From: Arctopsyche grandis
Lineage: Eukaryota > Arthropoda > Insecta > Trichoptera > Hydropsychidae
Direction: 5' to 3'
DNA length: 64,000 bases
Assembly (NCBI RefSeq): GCF_051622035.1
Contig: NC_135365.1
Coordinates: forward strand, 28,768,001-28,832,000
The position numbers and the translations under genes are program-made. The notes below the pieces were generated by a model. It was not told where the DNA came from. It worked only from the letters and a program-made list of their open reading frames with translations, and searched no databases. Below are positions 51,627 to 64,000 of the stretch, in pieces; the first letter of the stretch is position 1; every line of letters starts with the position of its first letter.

Positions 51627-52045
51627 TGTCCGAGCCAACAAACCCACATGGCCGTGTTTTGGGCTCTTACGGGCGCGCACTCATTTTTTACGAGTCGCGC
51701 TCATCTGTCAAAACAGACGCTCGCTATACGCCGGCCGAGACGCACGTCATCCGCCGGCCGAGACGGTACTGGCGTAGCTGGTCTACCTTGCCTGACCAGC
51801 TGCAGCCAGCGTACTCATCCACAGCCCCCGCCATAGAGGGGCACAGGCGCCGGCAAACTCCCCGGCTCGCCATTCTATTCTTATTAAACGAGGATAACCC
51901 GAGCTGACTTGTCTAATTTCCCACCCCGCCCTGTTCCAGCATGTGCTCCAGAGCGAGCTGAACACATAGAGACGACGACACACACACACAGCCACTGGTC
52001 ACCCAGCATACACACACACATTACAGCTCCTGAAGCTATCGTTCA
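51627..52045 (+). repeat. 5' LTR of BEL element 1
   Basis: 419 bases, begins TGTCCGAGCC, ends CTATCGTTCA. Contains TATTAAAC-like and CACACACACA tracts. Confidence 0.9.
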
Positions 52046-52272
52046 TGGTCCTTCGAGTCGGGATGATCTACAGCGCTGGACTCTGTCGTCGGCATACCAG
52101 GTTGGTCGTCAGCCATTTTGTCTCTCCCGTTATTCCTTTGTGTTGGCTGTCCGCCATCTTGTAATCCCGCTTCCCTTTTGTTTAACGGCGTGGGTTTTTC
52201 CCCCCCTTTTGTTTCACGGCGCGGGTTTCCCCCCCCGTGATATCATTTCACCCCTCACAGTTTCTCGAAGTC

Positions 52273-54681
52273 ATGACGACTCAATTGCGACGTCGTCGTG
52301 GCGCCCTTCGGGGAAGGCTGACGAAGCTCACGAATCTGGTCGACCAATTACCGCCGAGCGTGACCCGACTCGAATATAAGCTCGAGGAGGCGCGCCAGCT
52401 GCGTCTCGATTTTTTGGACACGCAGTCCGAGTTAGAAGCGTTAGAGCTCAAAGAGGCGGAGGAGTCCGCGCTGACATGGGACGAATTTGAGGACGCCTAT
52501 TTGGCATATACAGATGCAGTGCTGGACAAACTAGATGCCGCAAAGAGCATCACCTTGTCGGGAGGAACCTCCCCCCCAAGCGACCTTTTCCCGGTCGATC
52601 AAACCGTCCGTCGCACTGTTGACCAACTCGCTACTCCCCCAGTGGACCCACCCATTCGTCTCCCGGCACTAGAACTGCCAACATTCGATGGTAAGCTCGA
52701 AGATTGGCCCCAGTTCTCCCAACGCTTCCAAGCCGCAATAGACGGCAGTAAAGTGGATTCAGTCCGCTTCCAATATCTTACTGCCAGTCTTACCGGTGAG
52801 GCCCGCAACATTCTCCGCGGCCTCGACTGTGCGGAAGGGGCCTTCACCACCGCTTGGTCCATTCTCGAGGACCGGTACAACAATAAGAGGTTGTTGGTCC
52901 AGAGACACGTCCAGGCATTGCTCAACGCTGAGCCTGTGGGCCATGACGTCGGTCAAGGGTTGCGGCGGCTGTTGGATGACATCACCATGCATACCCGCAC
53001 CCTCGGGTCCATGGGCGTCCCCGTCGTCACATGGGACGACATCCTCGTATCTTCCTTGTCGTCCAAGCTGGACCAGTACACTGCCCGGCAATGGGACAAG
53101 CAATCGGTCAAGTACGAGGACTGGACATTCGACAAATTTCTCACGTTCCTCCGGTTTCAGTGCCAAGTGCAGATGAACGGCGAGGCCATCGAGAGGATGC
53201 ACCAGCCGCGTCCGTGCATACAGGCGGTTGCCGGGACTCCCGCTCATCACGAGAGAGTCAAGGCAGTTTCCTGCCCTAAGTGTCGGGGTGAACATGTGCT
53301 CCACTCATGCTCCTCGTTCCGGGACCTGGCCCCACCAGAGCGAATCAGCCTGGTCCGAAGGGCAAACCTCTGCAGGAACTGCCTGCGTCCTGGCCACCAG
53401 ACGACAGCTTGCAAGAGCCAAACTCGTTGCTCCCACTGTCGCAACCTACACCACACACTTTTGCACGCCGAGTTTACTCGGACTCCCAAACACTTCAACG
53501 CTGCTCCTGTCCCAAGGGCTGCAAGCGTCGCTAACGAAGCGCCACACGCGCCTAGCCTTCATTCCCTGCATTCAACCGTCAGGGCAGCAACAACCCCTCG
53601 CACCATTCTGTTATCCACAGTGGTGTTGTCTGCCCGTGGAGGCGATGGGCGTTGGCATAAGTGTCGAGCACTGCTCGACAGTGGGTCAGAGATGAACATC
53701 ATCTCCAATGACCTGCGTCAGCGGTTGAACGTCCAACCGCATGCATTGAATGCAAGCATGGTCGGGGTAGGCTGTAAGGAAACGCCAATCTCCCAGGGCG
53801 TAGTCTTGCACGTTGCTCCTCGGGGGTCGAGGAGCCATGCCAAAATAAAGGAGATGGAGTTTTTAGTGATCCCTAAGATCACGAACAATGTTCCATCCAG
53901 AGACCTGTCGGAATTACGGCTGGGGTTGCCCCAGCGTATTTACCTGGCTGACCCCACATTTGATTCGCCGGGGGCAGTCGACATGGTCCTCGGATGCTTG
54001 GCATTCCATCAGTCCCTTAAAGACGGTAGGAGGAATATTTCCATTCCTCCCTCACTCGCCAGCGAACGGGGCTCTACCATTCACCTGTTGAACACTTCGT
54101 TCGGCTGGGTTGTTAGTGGGGAACTGGGCTCAGTCCCAACAACCAACCGCTCCGGGAACTGCCATCAAAAAGCTTCTCGTGATCCGTCGGCGGACCGAAG
54201 AGTTCCGTTGCCAAAGCCTAGGGAACCCGCTTCTAAAAGAAGCCGCGGTAAACCCGCACCCGTTGTTCCTCATTTCATCCGACCTTCCCAACCCAGCTCC
54301 AAAAACTCCTGGTCAATTCCTAGCTGGCGAACCACTGGTTGCTCAACAGCGGGAGGATCTGCTCAATCAGCCCGCAGCACGGGCGCTACTGCACCAGCAT
54401 CTGCAGCAGCGGGCAGAGATGGTCACTGGAGGAGTGCGGCACACTCCTTCAACAGCAACACCAGGAAGGCAGCCCAACGAGTAGCTCGACTACCGACCGA
54501 GCGGCATGCAGAACATGGGGCGAGTCGCGTTGGTGCTTCCTGGGCACGACGGCGTCGCACGAATTATCACCCTGTGCACTCAGAGGGGCATCACCGACAG
54601 GGCAGCTGGCGAGACGCTCGTTGGCCCCCTGACCAGCCGACTAGGCCTGGGTGCACTCACTGTTCTCCGGCCCCCATATAA
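52273..54681 (+). CDS. Gag-protease polyprotein of BEL element 1 with shifted integrase tail
   Basis: About 802 residues from the ATG at 52273 (the upstream frame has no ATG). Order: coiled N-part; DUF1759-type gag core with LELPTFDGKLEDWPQFSQRF and AWSILEDRYNN; zinc knuckle region with CPKCRGEH, LCRNCLRPGH, CSHCRNLHH; then retropepsin-like DUF1758 domain with active site RALLDSGSEMNIIS and FGWVVSGE. After about residue 630 the frame enters sequence that, in another frame (54250-54640), still reads the integrase C-terminal end (TPGQFLAGEPLVA; LVLPGHDGVARIITL). The tail in the gag frame is therefore a Ser/Arg/Ala-rich novel sequence created by the pol deletion. Confidence 0.85.
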   Translation: MTTQLRRRRGALRGRLTKLTNLVDQLPPSVTRLEYKLEEARQLRLDFLDTQSELEALELKEAEESALTWDEFEDAYLAYTDAVLDKLDAAKSITLSGGTSPPSDLFPVDQTVRRTVDQLATPPVDPPIRLPALELPTFDGKLEDWPQFSQRFQAAIDGSKVDSVRFQYLTASLTGEARNILRGLDCAEGAFTTAWSILEDRYNNKRLLVQRHVQALLNAEPVGHDVGQGLRRLLDDITMHTRTLGSMGVPVVTWDDILVSSLSSKLDQYTARQWDKQSVKYEDWTFDKFLTFLRFQCQVQMNGEAIERMHQPRPCIQAVAGTPAHHERVKAVSCPKCRGEHVLHSCSSFRDLAPPERISLVRRANLCRNCLRPGHQTTACKSQTRCSHCRNLHHTLLHAEFTRTPKHFNAAPVPRAASVANEAPHAPSLHSLHSTVRAATTPRTILLSTVVLSARGGDGRWHKCRALLDSGSEMNIISNDLRQRLNVQPHALNASMVGVGCKETPISQGVVLHVAPRGSRSHAKIKEMEFLVIPKITNNVPSRDLSELRLGLPQRIYLADPTFDSPGAVDMVLGCLAFHQSLKDGRRNISIPPSLASERGSTIHLLNTSFGWVVSGELGSVPTTNRSGNCHQKASRDPSADRRVPLPKPREPASKRSRGKPAPVVPHFIRPSQPSSKNSWSIPSWRTTGCSTAGGSAQSARSTGATAPASAAAGRDGHWRSAAHSFNSNTRKAAQRVARLPTERHAEHGASRVGASWARRRRTNYHPVHSEGHHRQGSWRDARWPPDQPTRPGCTHCSPAPI

Positions 54682-55086
54682 TTTTGTCTTTTGTGTTTTT
54701 TCTTGTTCTGTGTGAAACTTATAACAAAAATGTTTGTGCCAATGTAGTAGTGGTTTGCTTGTGGTGCGCTAATTGACGCTTGATCCTTTAAGTTAATTTT
54801 GTGTTTGTGCCAGTGTAGTTGGTTTGGTTGTGGTGCGCTAATTGACGCTGTATCCATTAAGTTTGTTTTGTTTTCTTTTGGTTGCTAATGACACTTTACC
54901 CTTGTAGTAGTTGGTTTGGTTTTTTTTGTCGGTGTGCTATAATGTTTTTTTTTGCACTTTTAACCATGGGGGCTGGCTTTAGTTCCTAAGAAGATGTTTG
55001 TTACCACTGCTCTGTTTGTTTGTTGTCTGCTTTGTTATTATGTTAACTTTCTTGAAATATTGTGAATATTCCAACCCCGGGGAGTA

Positions 55087-55505
55087 TGTCCGAGCCAACA
55101 AACCCACATGGCCGTGTTTTGGGCTCTTACGGGCGCGCACTCATTTTTTACGAGTCGCGCTCATCTGTCAAAACAGACGCTCGCTATACGCCGGCCGAGA
55201 CGCACGTCATCCGCCGGCCGAGACGGTACTGGCGTAGCTGGTCTACCTTGCCTGACCAGCTGCAGCCAGCGTACTCATCCACAGCCCCCGCCATAGAGGG
55301 GCACAGGCGCCGGCAAACTCCCCGGCTCGCCATTCTATTCTTATTAAACGAGGATAACCCGAGCTGACTTGTCTAATTTCCCACCCCGCCCTGTTCCAGC
55401 ATGTGCTCCAGAGCGAGCTGAACACATAGAGACGACGACACACACACACAGCCACTGGTCACCCAGCATACACACACACATTACAGCTCCTGAAGCTATC
55501 GTTCA
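55087..55505 (+). repeat. 3' LTR of BEL element 1
   Basis: Matches 51627-52045 with no difference seen by eye. Confidence 0.9.
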
Positions 55506-55599
55506 ATGATTGATAGGGGATAGTTAAAGCTCGCTTTAAAGGTCAAGGAATTTGACTCTTAAAGCCCTCAACATGATGGTTGTTCATGAATATAAGGGA

Positions 55600-56310
55600 T
55601 AGTACGCGACGTGCTATATTCCTACAAATTAATTAGCCACAGGTTAATACATGGGAAAATATTGAAAGTAATATTTCCGGTGTCGACGGCCTCAATAGAA
55701 AAGTTGGTATATTATGTAGATTAAGAAATATTTTAAGTAAAAAAAGTAAAACTTTAGCGTTTAATTTAATTGTCTTGCCACATGTGGTTTATTGTTATAC
55801 TCTGCTTAATTTGTTTAGTGACCAAGATTTAGAAAAAAATGCAAAAAATACAGTATAAAGCTATGAGAGGTATTTTGAATGTGAGTAGATTTAGAGTATT
55901 GGAAGTATGTCAGATGAATTAGGATGGATGCGTATTACAATTAGTCTAAATATTAGTACATTGTCATTTGATTATTAGTTAGATCATAAGTTATTGCCAA
56001 AGTACTTTGATGATTATATAATTAGGAATAGAGATAAACATAGAACAAACTAGTTGTAAGTAGAGTAAGAAAAAATAAGACAGCTGGGGGTGTTTCTCAC
56101 AGGGGTGTGCCCATGTATAATGCCCTCCCTGAGGGCATCAGGTCTGCTAAGACCATGGATGCATTCTTGCGAGGTGCGAAGAGACACCTCTGTGACGGAC
56201 AGTACATATAAGTTAATTATAAATTTTAGAGTTAAGTAATCACGACGTATTTTTTAAATTAGTTTGATAGCTAAGATAATATATAAATAAATAAAAATAA
56301 AATGCATTGA
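55600..56310 (+). mobile_element. 3' part of a Jockey/CR1-type LINE
   Basis: Plus-strand frames, with breaks, read the C-terminal part of a LINE ORF2 (GLNRKVGILCRLRNIL, LPHVVYCYTLLNLFSD) and then the same end as the 3710-4130 copy (TAGGVSHRGVPMYNALPEGI). It ends in TATATAAATAAATAAAAATA. More complete than the other two copies but dead. Confidence 0.7.
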
Positions 56311-56924
56311 GACTGATAATAGTGAAGGGAAACGACAGATCATAACATATCATACATTTTGTGAACGAGTTATTAGGTAACCATATAATTTCGCTATTCC
56401 GTCTGTGTAAATGTACGTTAAATGTGCTAAAAATGTACCTTAAATTTAAACAATAAGTCACTATTAATAGTTTTTTGGGCTTTTATTATTTCTTATAGTA
56501 CATAATTTCTAGTGGCCATTACCTTTTATCATTAATTCTTTACACTGTAACAACTCCTGTGAAATGCGCTAAATTTAAATATGAGCAAATTCTATCTGTG
56601 ACAAAAAGTTGAAAAAGTTGTTAAAATTTTTAATATTAATTGTTATTGTTCCGACCAAGTCTTCATGGTCAGCTTTCGTGGCGTTACGACCAAAGGAGCC
56701 GTTTTGGAGGGAGATCGGTGCCGAGCGCGCGTCCCCGCCTTCTATTCGTTTTCCGCTTCGGTCGAGTGAACATCTATGGGATCTAGTCTTGTTGTGAAGG
56801 TCTTCTTCACCACCAGTCCGCCATGTATTATAGACAGGTTCGTCTGTGTTCGATATTAAATACAGCTATGTTCAATATGGTATTTATTTGGTAGTAACAC
56901 GTATACACAAGTATGATTAATTGT

Positions 56925-57135
56925 TGGCAAAAGTTTGTCGTTCAGCGGTCTCTGGATATGGTAGAGTGTCGCTGGCTCGGCATTCAGCTATGTTCGGCAA
57001 GTCGCTGGATATGGTAGAGTGTCGCTGGCTCGGCGTTCAGCTATGTTCGGCAAGTCGCTGGATATGGTAGAGTGTCGCTGGCTCGGCGTTCAGCTATGTT
57101 CGGCAAGTCGCTGGATATGGTAGAGTGTCGCTGGC
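56925..57135 (+). repeat. Tandem 52-base repeats inside the nested LTR
   Basis: Units ending CTGGATATGGTAGAGTGTCG and GCTCGGCGTTCAGCTATGTT repeat about four times; the same array is in the second LTR (58878-59088). Confidence 0.8.
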
Positions 57136-58142
57136 TCGTTGTTCTTCCAAGTCCGCGTAGTGAAGTGGTGGCTGGTCAGGAGCTGGATGTTGACTGGTCT
57201 GCTGCTGTGTGTCGACTCTTGCTGCTCTGGGTCGACTGGCGTGGTTTGGGTTGTACCTCCTTTTATAGTGTTTTTGGAATGCTTGGTGGAAGTGGTTATT
57301 GACGCGTACGAAAGGAATTTTGTTTTCGTCGAGGCGTCGAATTTTCTGGAATGCTTGATGCTGTTCCGCTCGATGTATTTTGTTGTTGCGGAATATTCTC
57401 GAAGGTTTCGATGACGATGCCGACGACGAGATTCCTACATGGCTCTCCGGTGAGTGTTAACGATGTGTGTGATTTTGTGGGAATCTTGATGTGTTGGAGT
57501 CTATTGACTCGATGGCGTCGTTGTTTGTCCGGTTGTGCTGGAGAAAGTTGTCTCGACAGCGGGTCTTGTGTTGCATGCCGGTCCAAGTCTTGTTCTCTAC
57601 CAGGTTGCTTATTTTGGGCGAGCTGCGTTGGTAGTGAAGGTTTGCGATGGCTTGGATGGTGCTGTTGTGCAGGCTGCTGTGTTCTGCGTGGAGTCATTCG
57701 CGTGACTGTTTTGCTGGTTGTGCTGGAGTTAGTTGTCTCGGCAGCGGGTCTTGCGTGAAGAACGTTGGTTGACGAAGTGCGTTGAGTGCTAGTCTTCGTT
57801 GGTTGTGCTGGAGTTAGTTGTCTCGACAGCGGATCTTGCGTGAAGTAGCTGGTCCATATGTACTTTCACACCATGTTACTGTTTCGGTCGTTACAATGGT
57901 AGTGAAGGTTTGTGTCGGTCTGGACGGTGCTGTTGTGCAGGCTGCGGCGTCCTGCATGGGCTCATCGAGGTGATGAATCATCGAAGGTGTGATGAGCGGT
58001 GCTGGCGGATCAACAGTAGTGGATCCATTTGGTTGTTGTCTCCGGGTTGCGTCTTGTTGTGGCGAAAGCTGCGGAGTTGTTTGACATGGTCACTATTTGT
58101 GGGGACATGTAGCGGACTGCGTTTGAAGTCTGCGTTGAGGGT

Positions 58143-58612
58143 TGCGTTGTGGGCTGCTATGTAGGCTGCGATGTGGGCTGCTATGTAGGCTGCGATGTGG
58201 GCTGCTATGTAGGCTGCGATGTGGGCTGCTATGTAGGCTGCGATGTGGGCTGCTATGTAGGCTGCGATGTGGGCTGCTATGTAGGCTGCGATGTGGGCTG
58301 CTATGTAGGCTGCGATGTGGGCTGCTATGTAGGCTGCAATGTGGGCTGCTATGTAGGCTGCGATGTGGGCTGCTATGTAGGCTGCAATGTGGGCTGCTAT
58401 GTGGGCTGCGATGTGGGCTGCTATGTAGGCTGCGATGTGGGCTGCTATGTAGGCTGCAATGTGGGCTGCTATGTGGGCTGCGATGTGGGCTGCTATGTAG
58501 GCTGCGATGTGGGCTGCTATGTAGGCTGCGATGTGGGCTGCTATGTAGGCTGCGATGTGGGCTGCTATGTAGGCTGCGATGTGGGCTGCTATGTAGGCTG
58601 CTTTGAAGGCTG
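58143..58612 (+). repeat. 24-base minisatellite, about 19 copies
   Basis: Unit GGGCTGCTATGTAGGCTGCG plus ATGT, with point variants (CAATGT, ATGTGGGC). A higher-order pattern shows in the alternation of GATGT and AATGT units at 58336-58480. All three plus frames are long open because 24 is divisible by 3; one reads the 8-residue repeat GCYVGCDV. Confidence 0.9.
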
Positions 58613-60080
58613 CGTGGCTCTTAGTCGGGGGTCACCAGTTATGGTGAGGTTGGAAGTTGACTGCACTGTGGGCTGCTTTGTTGACTGCTTTGAAGGCTGC
58701 GTGGCTCTTAGTCGGGGGTCACCAGGTATGGGGATCTAGTCTTGTTGTGAAGGTCTTCTTCACCACCAGTCCGCCATGTATTATAGACAGGTTCGTCTGT
58801 GTTCGATATTAAATACAGCTATGTTCAATATGGTATTTATTTGGTAGTAACACGTATACACAAGTATGATTAATTGTTGGCAAAAGTTTGTCGTTCAGCG
58901 GTCTCTGGATATGGTAGAGTGTCGCTGGCTCGGCATTCAGCTATGTTCGGCAAGTCGCTGGATATGGTAGAGTGTCGCTGGCTCGGCGTTCAGCTATGTT
59001 CGGCAAGTCGCTGGATATGGTAGAGTGTCGCTGGCTCGGCGTTCAGCTATGTTCGGCAAGTCGCTGGATATGGTAGAGTGTCGCTGGCTCGTTGTTCTTC
59101 CAAGTCCGCGTAGTGAAGTGGTGGCTGGTCAGGAGCTGGATGTTGACTGGTCTGCTGCTGTGTGTCGACTCTTGCTGCTCTGGGTCGACTGGCGTGGTTT
59201 GGGTTGTACCTCCTTTTATAGTGTTTTTGGAATGCTTGGTGGAAGTGGTTATTGACGCGTACGAAAGGAATTTTGTTTTCGTCGAGGCGTCGAATTTTCT
59301 GGAATGCTTGATGCTGTTCCGCTCGATGTATTTTGTTGTTGCGGAATATTCTCGAAGGTTTCGATGACGATGCCGACGACGAGATTCCTACACATCTCTG
59401 TTCGCTACCGAGTTTGTTCCCACCACCGAGTCCCGATCAGCTCAGCCTGGATCGGCAGACGATACTGGAAGTACAGCTTCAGTATACGTCCGGTGAGTAG
59501 TGAGGAAATCCTGGTCTTTCTTCGTCGAAGTCAGATCACGTAGTCACGTGAGGAGTGAAGTTATCATAACCTCTCGAACACGTGCGCGCTAATTTCACGA
59601 CGGACTCCCCCCCCCCCTGCTTATTCTCTGTATTTATACATATATAAAATACAGTCACCATACAAACAGAATTACAACCTGTTTTTATTATTATACAATT
59701 TCCTCCCTTTTTCCACATCACGCATCCCACGCACATTACGAAGGAGAAAGGGACATAGCAGAGCAGCCGACATCAGCAGAGACCAGACCACCGACGACGA
59801 AGGAAGGCACCTTGAGGAAACCAGCCCCGCCCAAGCTTACCACTAGCTATCTCAGAAAACCGACTTCCGGGGTGCTCTCGAGTTGAACATCCCTGGAGTC
59901 TGTACATTTGGTCCTTCGATTCCGTATGTCTTCAGAGCTGGTCTTCCAACGTCGTCGAATCCAGGTTGGTCGTAATTAGCATTTTTCTGTTGTTGTTGCT
60001 ATTTTTTTTGGTCGTCAACGTCCATTTTGTTTTTTCCCGCGTCCATTTTTTCCTTTGTTTGATTTCGTCGCATTTCAATA

Positions 60081-62381
60081 ATGGCGTCTTTGAGTACGCT
60101 TAAAAATACGCGGAAAAGAATTCGCGCTCGGTTAACGAGAAACGCGAATCAATTGGGGGACGATCTGAGCATCTTCGAGCTCAGAATCAGGCTCGAAACA
60201 ATCAGACCATTACTGTCTGAATTCGAAGCGATCCAAGCTCAGATAAACGAGCTGGACCAAGAAGAGGCGCAGGCCTCCGAATCCGTCGTGGACCTATTTG
60301 ATAGGGAGCATATGGCCGCCTTCGTGCGATGCACCGAAGCAATCAATTTGCGTGAGCCGCAATTGAGCGCTTCACCGTTAGATGGCGCTAACCTCACAAT
60401 GTCACCTGTACCGCAATCAAATTCGGCAATAAAATTGCCCCGTTTGGAGTTGCCCACCTTCGAAGGCAACGTCCAAAATTGGCCGCTTTTTTCACAACGC
60501 TTCTTGGCCGCTATGGCCGGCGAGAGTTCGCAAATCGCCCGGTTCCAATACTTACTAGGAAGCCTAAAAGGAGAGCCCCAACGTTTAGTTGACGGCTTGG
60601 AATTAGCTTCAGATTCATTTACGAGCGCGTGGTCCATTTTGGATCAACGCTATAACAACAAAAAAATTGTTGTTCAGTATCACCTTCAGGCATTGCTTGA
60701 AGCCGAGCCAGTCGTGAGCAACAATCACGTCAGTCTGCGTCGTCTCATAGATGATGCCAACATGCATGTACGTGCGCTCGTTAACTTGGGCGTCCGGGTC
60801 GAGACCTGGAACGAGATTCTGGTGATGTTTATCACCAGAAAACTCGACCGGAGTACACTTCTGCAATGGGAGCTTCAGACTCCCAAGTATGAAGACTGCA
60901 CGTTTAGCAAAATAATGCATTTTCTAACGTGCCAGTGCCAATCGATGGCAAATGCCGACTTCGTCTTAAAAGGCGAGTCGAATCCTCGACCAAGAACCAT
61001 TACGAATCCGAAGGCAGCAGTTCTGCATGTGAGGAGGGAACGCCCCTCCTGCATCAGTTGCAGCGGAAGTCATTCTCTGCTAGCCTGTCCATCACTCCGC
61101 CAAATGAGCGGTGATGAGCGTAGGTCGAACGCCATAAAACGTCGACTATGTCTCAACTGCTTGAGGCCAGGGCACATAGTTCACGCGTGCCAAACAAAGC
61201 AGAGATGCTTCAAATGCGGTCATGCCCATCACACCATGTTACATGACTCAACTCCATACCAAACTTCGCCTTCAAATAAGGCCAAACATTATCGGAGCCC
61301 CAAGAAATCAGAGAACGCCAAACCCGTAAAATCATCGTTGGTTTTACACTCGGTGAGACGCGTATCGCCTTCTCACGCCCGAACTGTCCTGTTATCCACC
61401 GTGGAAGTACAAGTTCGCGGCGGAGATGGGCGTTCGCACAAGGTTCGAGCATTGTTAGATAACGGCTCCGAACTCAACCTCATCTCTGAAGACTTAAGAA
61501 GGCGACTCGCCTTAAAGTCGAAAAGGATGGACGTCAACCTGGTAGGAATAGGTTCAAATAGGACGTCCATTACTAGTGGCGCGGTAATTCGAATTCTACC
61601 GCGCATCCCCAATCAGGGCTCCAGTGTTGATCTCGATTGCGCAATCATGCCCGAGATCGCGAATCAACTTCCATCGCGCAACGTGTCCGAGATTCGGAGC
61701 CATTTGCCGCTTCATCTCCCCCTTGCCGATCCATCATTCGATATTCCCGGTACAGTGGATATGGTGATAGGCAGCGACGCCTATCATGCGATGTTACGCA
61801 ATGGCAAACGTACCATTTTAGTTCCCTCCAAGTCACGCGGTGACAGAGGAGGACGCATCGCGATGATGAATACAGCTTTCGGCTGGATATTGGGCGGCTC
61901 TCTAGAAGCGCCCACAGTTTCAAGCGATTCTCGGAATTGCCATCACACAACGGGTCGTGATCCGTTATCTTGTTTTGGCGCGAGACGTCCAGTCAAGACA
62001 GTTACGCGTCCCCTGGACGAATCGCGTATTTCCGCGGTACGAAGATTCCGCTTGCCGAAGCGCAATGTACCCGCGCCCTTTAACCCTCACATCTTTCGAC
62101 CTTCCCAACCCAGCTCCCATAACTCCTGGCCAGTTCCTAGTTGGCGCACCACTAGTTGCGCAACAGCAGGAGGATCTGGTCGATCAGCCCGGAGCGAGGG
62201 TGCTACCACACCAGCACATGCAGCAGCGGCCCCTGGCAGACAGGGGCACAGGAGTAGGTCCTACTACTCCTCCATCAGCAACACCAAGCGAGCAGTCCGG
62301 CGAGTAGCTCGACTGCCAGTCGAGCAGCACTCAGTGAATTTGTGCAACGGTGTGGCGAACGTTCATAACGTCCCACATTAA
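60081..62381 (+). CDS. Gag-protease polyprotein of BEL element 2
   Basis: 766 residues from ATG 60081. Same plan as element 1: gag core with LELPTFEGNVQNWPLFSQRF and AWSILDQRYNN; knuckles CISCSGSH, LCLNCLRPGH, CFKCGHAHH; retropepsin-like domain with VRALLDNGSELNLIS and FGWILGGS. The catalytic D-S-G is D-N-G here, so protease activity is doubtful. From about residue 650 the gag frame again overruns integrase-tail DNA that reads TPGQFLVGAPLVAQQ in another frame (62110-62190), ending in RRVARLPVEQHS. Confidence 0.85.
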   Translation: MASLSTLKNTRKRIRARLTRNANQLGDDLSIFELRIRLETIRPLLSEFEAIQAQINELDQEEAQASESVVDLFDREHMAAFVRCTEAINLREPQLSASPLDGANLTMSPVPQSNSAIKLPRLELPTFEGNVQNWPLFSQRFLAAMAGESSQIARFQYLLGSLKGEPQRLVDGLELASDSFTSAWSILDQRYNNKKIVVQYHLQALLEAEPVVSNNHVSLRRLIDDANMHVRALVNLGVRVETWNEILVMFITRKLDRSTLLQWELQTPKYEDCTFSKIMHFLTCQCQSMANADFVLKGESNPRPRTITNPKAAVLHVRRERPSCISCSGSHSLLACPSLRQMSGDERRSNAIKRRLCLNCLRPGHIVHACQTKQRCFKCGHAHHTMLHDSTPYQTSPSNKAKHYRSPKKSENAKPVKSSLVLHSVRRVSPSHARTVLLSTVEVQVRGGDGRSHKVRALLDNGSELNLISEDLRRRLALKSKRMDVNLVGIGSNRTSITSGAVIRILPRIPNQGSSVDLDCAIMPEIANQLPSRNVSEIRSHLPLHLPLADPSFDIPGTVDMVIGSDAYHAMLRNGKRTILVPSKSRGDRGGRIAMMNTAFGWILGGSLEAPTVSSDSRNCHHTTGRDPLSCFGARRPVKTVTRPLDESRISAVRRFRLPKRNVPAPFNPHIFRPSQPSSHNSWPVPSWRTTSCATAGGSGRSARSEGATTPAHAAAAPGRQGHRSRSYYSSISNTKRAVRRVARLPVEQHSVNLCNGVANVHNVPH

Positions 62382-62826
62382 AGTTGGCGCGTTGTTTGTA
62401 TCTGTGTTGTGGATTCAGTTTATGTGTTTTAACTTAAGTTTTTGAGTTGCTTTTCTTTTATGCTTCTCTTGTTGGTTTGATTGGTGCTTTGTAATAGAGC
62501 TATCAGGATAGATTGGGACATATAACGATTGAACAATATTGTTACCTAGCATTGGTGTTGGTTATTTGTTGGTGTTTTGGTTGTTTGTTTGTCTATTTTT
62601 TGTTTGTTTCATGCCGGCTTAGTCAGCTGCTTATGTAGGATGGGAAACTGACGGTGGACTAATGTTATTTTGTTTGCTGACTGGGTTATTTTGTTGTGTT
62701 GTTTTTTATTTTGTTGTTATTTTTTTGCTTATTTGCTTGGTTTTTGTGTATGTCATTAGTCGCTTGTGCACCATTAATTCTTGTTTGTTTTGGAATTCGA
62801 TCCTCTGACTTCCAACGAGGGGAGTA

Positions 62827-63464
62827 TGTTCCGACCAAGTCTTCATGGTCAGCTTTCGTGGCGTTACGACCAAAGGAGCCGTTTTGGAGGGAGATCGGCG
62901 CCGAGCGCGCGTCCCCGCCTTCTATTCGTTTTCCGCTTCGGTCGAGTGAACATCTCTGTTCGCTACCGAGTTTGTTCCCACCACCGAGTCCCGATCAGCT
63001 CAGCCTGGATCGGCAGACGATACTGGAAGTACAGCTTCAGTATACGTCCGGTGAGTAGTGAGGAAATCCTGGTCTTTCTTCGTCGAAGTCAGATCACGTA
63101 GTCACGTGAGGAGTGAAGTTATCATAACCTCTCGAACACGTGCGCGCTAATTTCACGACGGACTCCCCCCCCCCCTGCTTATTCTCTGTATTTATACATA
63201 TATAAAATACAGTCACCATACAAACAGAATTACAACCTGTTTTTATTATTATACAATTTCCTCCCTTTTTCCACATCACGCATCCCACGCACATTACGAA
63301 GGAGAAAGGGACATAGCAGAGCAGCCGACATCAGCAGAGACCAGACCACCGACGACGAAGGAAGGCACCTTGAGGAAACCAGCCCCGCCCAAGCTTACCA
63401 CTAGCTATCTCAGAAAACCGACTTCCGGGGTGCTCTCGAGTTGAACATCCCTGGAGTCTGTACA
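62827..63464 (+). repeat. 3' LTR of BEL element 2
   Basis: 638 bases; agrees with the two parts of the 5' LTR by eye apart from one base (GATCGGTGCC versus GATCGGCGCC). Confidence 0.9.
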
Positions 63465-63598
63465 GTTATCATGTAAAAATTATTTAATATGTATGAACAC
63501 ACAGTTAGCTCCATTGTATTTTTGTGTAAAAGAAATAATAAAAGCCCAAAAAACTATTAATAGTGACTTATTGTTTAAATTTAAGGTACATTTTTAGC

Positions 63599-64000
63599 CC
63601 ATTCTCAAAGACTTCAAAGAGTGTTTGTCTGTAATAGTCCCCTGTCCAAAAAATGTTTGTATTTTAAGTTAAACCAATGAGTGAGAGGTGACTACGAGCT
63701 TGTTAAAATACAAAGTGTTCTATGGCTCAGGTCTTCTATGGCTCAAAGTGTTCTATGGCTCAGGTCACGCAGGGCTGTTTTGGTCTTTCGGACAAATGTA
63801 TCTCTGGACTCCGGAGAGATATATGTAGTTAGATTAAGCGTTTCACACCCGGTGATTTCTTAGTCGTTCACATTTTTATACATTTGGTCTGGTCGGTGAA
63901 GCCGAGAGCTATGTTCTGGGACATGTGTAATGAAATTAAATATTTATAATATAATATTGATTCTTCAAAAGGTAAAAAAATTCCGACTGTTAAAATATTG
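63599..64000. other. Right edge, no gene seen
   Basis: Contains a short tandem of TCTATGGCTCA(GG/AA) at 63719-63765 and otherwise unremarkable sequence. Confidence 0.4.

What the first reader, a model, noticed from the sequence alone, without database searches (positions are those of the whole stretch)
52273..62381. Two different BEL elements carry the same gag-protease-only architecture
The two ORFs are clearly diverged, yet both lose reverse transcriptase, RNase H and integrase core and rejoin to the same integrase-tail region (TPGQFL...GxPLVAQQ), both out of frame with gag. Both have young LTRs and exact target duplications. This points to an old deletion in a common ancestor that has kept transposing as a gag-carrying non-autonomous lineage, parasitic on full BEL elements.
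Basis: partly seen in the sequence, partly recalled or inferred. Interest (0 to 1): 0.8.

Follow-up and report, generated by a model that had tools for sequence, protein, structure and literature searches.

The report
Recombining gag-protease-only BEL retrotransposons
Two young jumping genes that have lost their copying enzymes share the same damaged stretch of code, and the evidence suggests that this stretch was passed between different element lineages by recombination, while one of them has an intact, fully equipped relative with matching ends elsewhere in the genome.

Summary
Elements A (51627-55505) and B (56647-63464) are young BEL/Pao LTR elements that keep gag and protease, lack RT, RNase H and the integrase core, and rejoin a short integrase tail. 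Both are multicopy: 10 A-type copies examined; B's second deletion joint at 105 genome places. B has an intact full-length relative (L036/L037; integrase 31-mer at 19 places) that shares the start of its LTR (99%, L037) and its 3' UTR (98-99%). Gag-protease is under purifying selection against these relatives (omega 0.15-0.34); within recent copies the signal is modest. The interpretation needs changing: A and B are not two branches of one vertically inherited deleted element. A's protease is 8% from full-length L021 and 47% from B, yet its integrase tail is 22% from B and 41% from L021. A also carries B's third joint followed by an L021-like segment out of order, and B itself is a mosaic. So a deletion cassette has moved between backbones by recombination, probably template switching. 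This resembles wheat Cereba/Quinta and Sabrina; I saw no BEL/Pao case in the library searched. No intact cognate helper for A appeared among the RT places scored.

The parts
51627..52045 (+). Element A, 5' LTR (419 bp; target duplication ATGAT)
52046..52063 (+). Element A primer-binding-site region (TGGTCCTTCGA...; same as L021; L036/L037/B have it two bases further in). Read from memory as tRNA-Tyr type.
   Evidence: tRNA identity recalled, not tested
52273..54681 (+). Element A frame, 802 aa: gag (DUF1759 at aa 138-282), two Cys-His motifs (from 53272 and 53371), protease (LLDSGS at 53671), then a tail in a frame other than pol
54139..54166 (+). A: end of the L021/L035-like protease sequence; first joint J1 (...NCHQ / RDP...)
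54235..54508 (+). A: B/L036-like piece: integrase tail (TPGQFL...) plus third joint J3 (LLQQQHQ... joined to RVARLP...)
54514..54691 (+). A: L021-like end of pol (MGRV...), which in full-length elements lies upstream of RVARLP: out of order
55087..55505 (+). Element A, 3' LTR (preceded by GGGGAGTA)
56647..56775 (+). Element B, 5' LTR, first piece (target duplication GTTAT)
59392..59906 (+). Element B, 5' LTR, second piece
60081..62381 (+). Element B frame, 766 aa: gag (DUF1759 at aa 127-267), two Cys-His motifs, protease (LLDNGS at 61452), integrase tail out of the pol frame, last 31 codons in the pol frame
60950..62300 (+). B: cassette (end of gag, protease, joints, integrase tail), about 95-100% identical to L027/L028 but 62-83% to full-length L036/L037; ends approximate
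61932..62064 (+). B: joint J1 (RNCHH / RDP), weakly matched remnant of the start of RT (61983-62064 vs L036 3701-3782, 62%, E 0.002), joint J2 into integrase
62384..62826 (+). B: 3' untranslated region, 98-99% identical to L036 and L037
62827..63464 (+). Element B, 3' LTR; first 173 bp 99% identical to L037 (97% to L036), last 265 bp 85% (81%)

Best explanation
A and B are semi-autonomous BEL/Pao elements. They encode their own Gag and probably protease and depend in trans on RT, RNase H and integrase from full-length BEL elements. B's helper is most likely the intact L036/L037 family, with which B shares much of the LTR, the 3' UTR, the primer site, the 3' purine tract and patches of gag. The shared architecture is a deletion cassette of one origin with three joints: protease end to start of RT, start of RT to integrase tail, integrase tail to pol C-terminus. 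It has been placed in different LTR/gag backbones by recombination, most simply template switching between co-packaged RNAs during reverse transcription. A is the cassette in an L021-type backbone; B and L027/L028 are the cassette in different backbones of the L036/L037 group. Shown: anatomy, copy number, youth, conflicting histories, out-of-order joint, an intact full-length relative, selection on gag-protease. Inferred: Pol supplied in trans, co-packaging, template switching as the route, the direction of exchange, the helper used by A.
For: No RT/IN match in A-type copies L009-L017 beyond the protease-end stretch. B's second joint (31 bases, up to 2 mismatches) at 105 places, reversed-pattern control 0; L036/L037 integrase 31-mer at 19 places, control 0. 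18 RT places at 58-60% identity, 13 of them with open frames of 1624-1798 aa and no stop. L036/L037: LTR pairs 99.85% and 100%, frames 1732 and 1734 aa. B vs L037: start of LTR 99%, 3' UTR 98-99%, cassette windows 62-83%; B vs L028 in that block 96-100% with a sharp start near 60950. Protease tree splits {A,L026,L021} from {B,L028,L036,L037}, tail tree splits {A,L026,B,L028} from {L021,L036,L037}, UFBoot 100 each. In 2000 of 2000 bootstraps A is nearer L021 in protease and in 2000 of 2000 nearer B in tail. A 54471-54507 matches L036 6805-6841 and B (0 of 1000 shuffles reach the score) but not L021 (935 of 1000 reach it); then A 54514-54635 matches L036 6715-6837 and, better, L021 6317-6439 (0 of 1000 each). 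Omega B vs L028 0.24 in NC-protease; B vs L036/L037 0.15-0.34.
Against: No expression, packaging or transposition data. For A only L021/L022, two copies of one damaged insertion, are above 60% in RT, among 65 scored of 557 candidates. In the protease tree full-length L021 is sister to A with deletion-bearing L026 outside (FastTree 0.944; UFBoot 89 on the node separating A and L021 from the rest; one search gives 1402 of 2000 for that grouping and 598 for A with L026), so it is open whether A and L026 took the cassette separately or L021 took a pol onto an A-type backbone; L035, a protease-RT fragment of the L021 type that branches outside these, favours a full-length ancestor. Selection among recent copies is weakly measured (A, 7 copies: 23 synonymous, 39 non-synonymous; B, 5 copies: 10 and 13), and several pairs of near-identical A copies give ratios near or above 1 on few differences. 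2 of 6 fetched B copies have broken frames. The tail alignment is short (252 columns). The RT remnant in B is weak (E 0.002). J1 and J2 are homologous, not base-identical, between A and B.
Confidence: 0.8

Rival explanations
1. One reading: one old deletion in a common ancestor of both elements, A and B descending whole and vertically, the tail similarity kept by constraint.
For: The deletion-bearing tails form one group; joints are shared; gag-protease is under selection.
Against: A's protease is 8% from L021 and 47% from B, its tail 22% from B and 41% from L021. The tail is not unusually slow: A vs L026, tail 10%, protease 6%; A vs L023, however, tail dN and dS are about half those of gag-protease. 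Out-of-order joint in A; sharp mosaic edges among B relatives.
Confidence: 0.08
2. Recurrent formation: the deletion is a splice product (a Gag-protease subgenomic RNA, as recalled for copia) or a hotspot, formed separately in each lineage.
For: Same borders in two lineages. By eye a GT lies near the RT side and an AG near the integrase side of J2 in L036 (not tested formally). Spliced Gag RNAs are recalled for some copia-type elements (PMC3735527, PMC8892269: search listing with start of abstract only).
Against: Three separate joints rather than one; A's tail is B-like and not like that of its gag relative L021.
Confidence: 0.04
3. Same structure, but the Gag is dispensable: A and B are plain parasites moved entirely by helper Gag and Pol, and the open frames reflect youth.
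For: 2 of 6 fetched B copies and 2 of 10 A-type copies have interrupted frames; ratios among recent copies are only mildly below neutral.
Against: Omega 0.24 between deletion-bearing B and L028 (8 synonymous-only, 6 non-synonymous codons) and 0.15-0.34 to full-length relatives (the latter includes time as full-length elements); 8 of 10 A-type and 4 of 6 fetched B copies keep the whole frame.
Confidence: 0.2

Closest known systems
RLG_Cereba / RLG_Quinta of einkorn wheat (PMC11302176; passages read, among them parts of the abstract)
   Same: Full-length partner plus a shorter partner that encodes GAG and lacks RT and INT; the authors infer partnership from shared features including the purine tract; two Quinta lineages have GAG genes about 65% identical between flanks over 90% identical, put down to template switching.
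   Different: Plant, centromeric; Quinta keeps GAG plus an unknown domain. Here BEL/Pao, protease kept, and the exchanged piece carries the deletion joints.
RLG_Sabrina_SA, semi-autonomous GAG-Pro elements of wheat (PMC9744471; passages read)
   Same: GAG plus protease frame without RT and INT; host switches by gene conversion or template switching are proposed.
   Different: Plant Gypsy elements; homology between partners is said to be reduced to a few motifs, whereas B shares long, nearly identical stretches with L036/L037.
TR-GAG elements (e.g. PMC8704663; search listing and start of abstract only)
   Same: LTR elements with a GAG domain only (definition recalled).
   Different: Described in plants (recalled); not compared by sequence.
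CM-gag of Culex pipiens (title in the reference list of PMC3286476)
   Same: Reiterated mosquito element said in its title to contain only a gag gene.
   Different: Only the title was seen; relation to BEL/Pao not checked.

Membership tests
BEL/Pao LTR retrotransposon | LTRs with 5-bp target duplication, primer site and purine tract | tested here: met
BEL/Pao LTR retrotransposon | BEL-type gag (DUF1759) and protease | tested here: met
   (DUF1759 well above cut-off; protease below cut-off, motifs LLDSGS/LLDNGS); that DUF1759 marks BEL gag is recalled
BEL/Pao LTR retrotransposon | BEL-type RT and integrase | tested here: not met
   absent in A and B, present in relatives L021, L036, L037: so a non-autonomous derivative of BEL elements, not a complete one
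Semi-autonomous GAG(-Pro) LTR element (Sabrina_SA / Quinta / TR-GAG type) | intact gag frame without RT/IN in a multicopy family | tested here: met
   8 of 10 A-type and 4 of 6 fetched B copies intact; B joint at 105 places
Semi-autonomous GAG(-Pro) LTR element (Sabrina_SA / Quinta / TR-GAG type) | autonomous partner sharing cis-acting ends | tested here: met
   met for B; for A only the damaged L021/L022 insertion was found
Semi-autonomous GAG(-Pro) LTR element (Sabrina_SA / Quinta / TR-GAG type) | mobilised in trans; Gag contributed to particles | not testable with these tools
   needs RNA and protein data
LARD / TRIM (definition recalled) | lack of coding sequence | tested here: not met
   long open frames

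The most novel reading that the evidence does not exclude
The deletion cassette is a transferable parasitic module. It turns any co-packaged BEL RNA into a small Gag-making parasite and has thereby outlived its original lineage. Element A is its product in a lineage whose own Pol-encoding form survives in this assembly only as a damaged insertion, and it keeps moving on a foreign helper (the L036/L037 group, about 59% identical in RT to A's own relative L021).
Probability: 0.3. Interest if true: 0.75.

Novelty: new variant of a known kind. Interest (0 to 1): 0.6.

Why it matters
It extends the helper / Gag-only partner system known from wheat to the BEL/Pao superfamily, as far as the library searched shows. 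One genome holds an intact full-length family, its deleted relatives and several recombinants, so the question of how non-autonomous LTR elements change helpers can be tested from sequence. The parasite's joint outnumbers the full-length marker, 105 places to 19.

Tried and rejected
Rejected: splice-product origin (three joints, tail from the wrong lineage). Constraint on the tail as the reason for the A-B similarity: tail 10% against protease 6% between A and L026, although between A and L023 the tail is slower than gag-protease. Selection on the overprinted tail was not decided: codon-position differences 12, 5, 11 in the gag frame over 161 bases, 23, 21, 28 over the longer tail; tail variants among recent copies 5 synonymous and 10 non-synonymous in A, 0 and 3 in B. 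L021 as a one-off chimera: L035 holds a fragment of the same protease-RT type (RT part 16% different), but the direction of exchange stays open. L038 (45% RT family) has no DNA match to A or B and was dropped as helper. Pfam gave nothing for the two short pol-frame tail pieces. Rows left out of the count of 10 A-type copies: L018 (A-like only to 53049), L019/L020, L021/L022, L023, L024-L026 and the remaining hits. Not obtained: a genome count of the A joint and a search with the A LTR (not completed).

Full report
WHAT IS THERE. The window lies in an unnamed assembly of 475.7 Mb (C11:28768001-28832000); the organism was not identified. Element A spans 51627-55505, with identical 419-bp LTRs, duplication ATGAT and an 802-aa frame. 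Element B spans 56647-63464, with duplication GTTAT, one mismatch over the 644 LTR bases compared and a 766-aa frame; its 5' LTR is split by a nested 2.6-kb element. Both frames hold a DUF1759 gag domain, Cys-His motifs and an aspartyl protease motif. RT, RNase H and the integrase core are absent. Downstream the DNA matches the C-terminal tail of BEL integrase in another frame.

THEY ARE FAMILIES, AND YOUNG. Ten A-type copies were compared (window and L009-L017). Eight show an exact 5-bp duplication, all different; L015 is offset by one base, and the 5' LTR of L017 matched only in part. Of 9 LTR pairs measured, 8 differ by 0-1 mismatches and L016 by 7; 5 of the 9 also differ by gaps, which lie in a short internal repeat in the two alignments printed. 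The long frame is complete in 8 of 10. For B, the 40 scored places (of 183 candidates) are 99-100% identical over 1301 bases. Six more copies were fetched: 6 of 6 have the same structure and their own duplication, 4 of 6 an intact frame. B's second joint occurs at 105 places (49 + 56) with up to 2 mismatches; the reversed-pattern control is 0; those listed have 0 or 1 mismatch.

THE FULL-LENGTH RELATIVE. An RT search scored 65 of 557 candidates: L021 and L022 at 99-100%, 18 places at 58-60% (13 with open frames of 1624-1798 aa without stops) and 45 at 45%. L036 and L037, of the second group, have LTR pairs at 99.85% and 100% and single frames of 1732 and 1734 aa. They share with B the primer site start TTTGGTCCTTCGA and the GGGGAGTA purine tract. 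They are 98-99% identical to B over the 3' UTR, and L037 is 99% identical over the first 173 bases of the LTR. B's protease motif LLDNGS is also theirs. A 31-base integrase marker of this family occurs at 19 places, control 0.

CONFLICTING HISTORIES. In protease, p-distances are A-L026 0.063, A-L021 0.082, A-B 0.469 and B-L036 0.223. In the integrase tail they are A-L026 0.102, A-B 0.220, A-L021 0.406, A-L036 0.310 and B-L036 0.293. Trees split {A, L026, L021} from {B, L028, L036, L037} in protease, and {A, L026, B, L028} from {L021, L036, L037} in the tail, each with UFBoot 100. In 2000 of 2000 bootstraps A is nearer L021 in protease, and in 2000 of 2000 nearer B in the tail. Within the A group the order is not firm: protease puts full-length L021 beside A and deletion-bearing L026 outside (FastTree 0.944; 1402 of 2000 bootstraps). 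This allows two readings: separate uptake of the cassette by A and L026, or uptake of a pol by an A-type backbone to give L021. L035, a damaged protease-RT fragment of the L021 type that branches outside them, favours a full-length ancestor of this group. Either way recombination is needed.

THE OUT-OF-ORDER JOINT. In L036 the order is LLQQRH ... MGRI ... RVARLP. B has lost the part between LLQQ and RVARLP (joint J3). A has the same joint, and the ungapped match to B runs to 54511 at 70% over 121 bases. A 54471-54507 matches B and L036 (0 of 1000 shuffles reach the scores) but not L021 (935 of 1000 reach it). From 54514 A resumes with MGRV, which lies upstream of RVARLP in full-length elements and is closest to L021 (score 51, against 35 for L036; 0 of 1000 shuffles each). 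So A holds a B-type piece next to an L021-type end.

B IS ALSO A MOSAIC. Against L028 and L027, B is 68-91% in windows of the first half of gag, then 95-100% from about 60950 to 62300; against L028 it then falls to 75-79% in the 3' UTR. Against L037 the pattern is nearly the reverse: 98-99% in UTR and start of LTR, patches up to 95% in gag, 62-83% in the cassette and 88% at 62290-62384. L036 and L037 differ strongly from each other in the first part of gag (dS 0.83) and little in the second (dS 0.09), so full-length elements exchange gag segments too.

SELECTION. B against L036 and L037: omega 0.19 and 0.34 in the first part of gag, 0.19 and 0.15 in the second part plus protease; this includes time spent as full-length elements. 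B against L028, both deleted: dN 0.008, dS 0.035, omega 0.24 (8 synonymous-only and 6 non-synonymous codons). Within young copies, gag-protease: A (7 copies) 23 synonymous and 39 non-synonymous, pN/pS 0.63; B (5 copies) 10 and 13, 0.46. A against L023: 0.59; several pairs of nearly identical A copies give values near or above 1 on a handful of differences.

HOW IT PROBABLY WORKS. The deleted RNA is transcribed from its LTR, makes Gag and perhaps protease, is packaged with the RNA and Pol of a full-length BEL element, reverse transcribed and inserted. Template switching between co-packaged RNAs refits the cassette with new LTR, UTR and gag. The sequence shows products that such steps would leave; the steps themselves are inferred. 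For A no intact cognate helper appears among the places scored, so a foreign helper, or one missing from the assembly, must be assumed.

KNOWN OR NEW. The system works like the wheat pairs Cereba/Quinta (PMC11302176, passages) and Sabrina_SA (PMC9744471, passages). A gag-only mosquito element is on record at least by title (CM-gag). Passages of PMC3442997 and PMC3286476 and the abstract and passages of PMC4580426 showed no such BEL family. In the ten searches of the open library I saw, in listings only, no BEL/Pao case of a recombining gag-protease-only family. Papers outside that library were not searched.

Noticed in passing
56775-59392: An LTR element with about 666-bp LTRs (99.85% identical) and an internal 12-bp tandem array sits inside B's 5' LTR; its flanks suggest a 4-bp duplication CATC. 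It was not classified.
   Followed up: partly
56421-56497 and 63527-63603: 77-base inverted arms, 97% complementary, flank B; B may have inserted into a small inverted-repeat DNA transposon.
   Followed up: no
L019/L020, L021/L022, L024-L026 (contig C2, 31-39 Mb): A-like copies in this contig share flanking duplications (L019/L020, L021/L022) or near-identical sequence (L024-L026), which points to segmental duplications rather than separate insertions.
   Followed up: partly
L038 (C6:22003300-22012500): A second BEL family (45% RT identity to L021); 40 of its 45 scored places have a 1759-aa open frame, which suggests recent activity.
   Followed up: partly
54731-54874: The 3' untranslated region of A holds a tandem duplication with a period of about 71 bases.
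   Followed up: no
L023: An A-like copy (88%) with a further deletion matching A 53928-54307 (protease end, J1, J2) that still stays in frame to the same C-terminus.
   Followed up: partly
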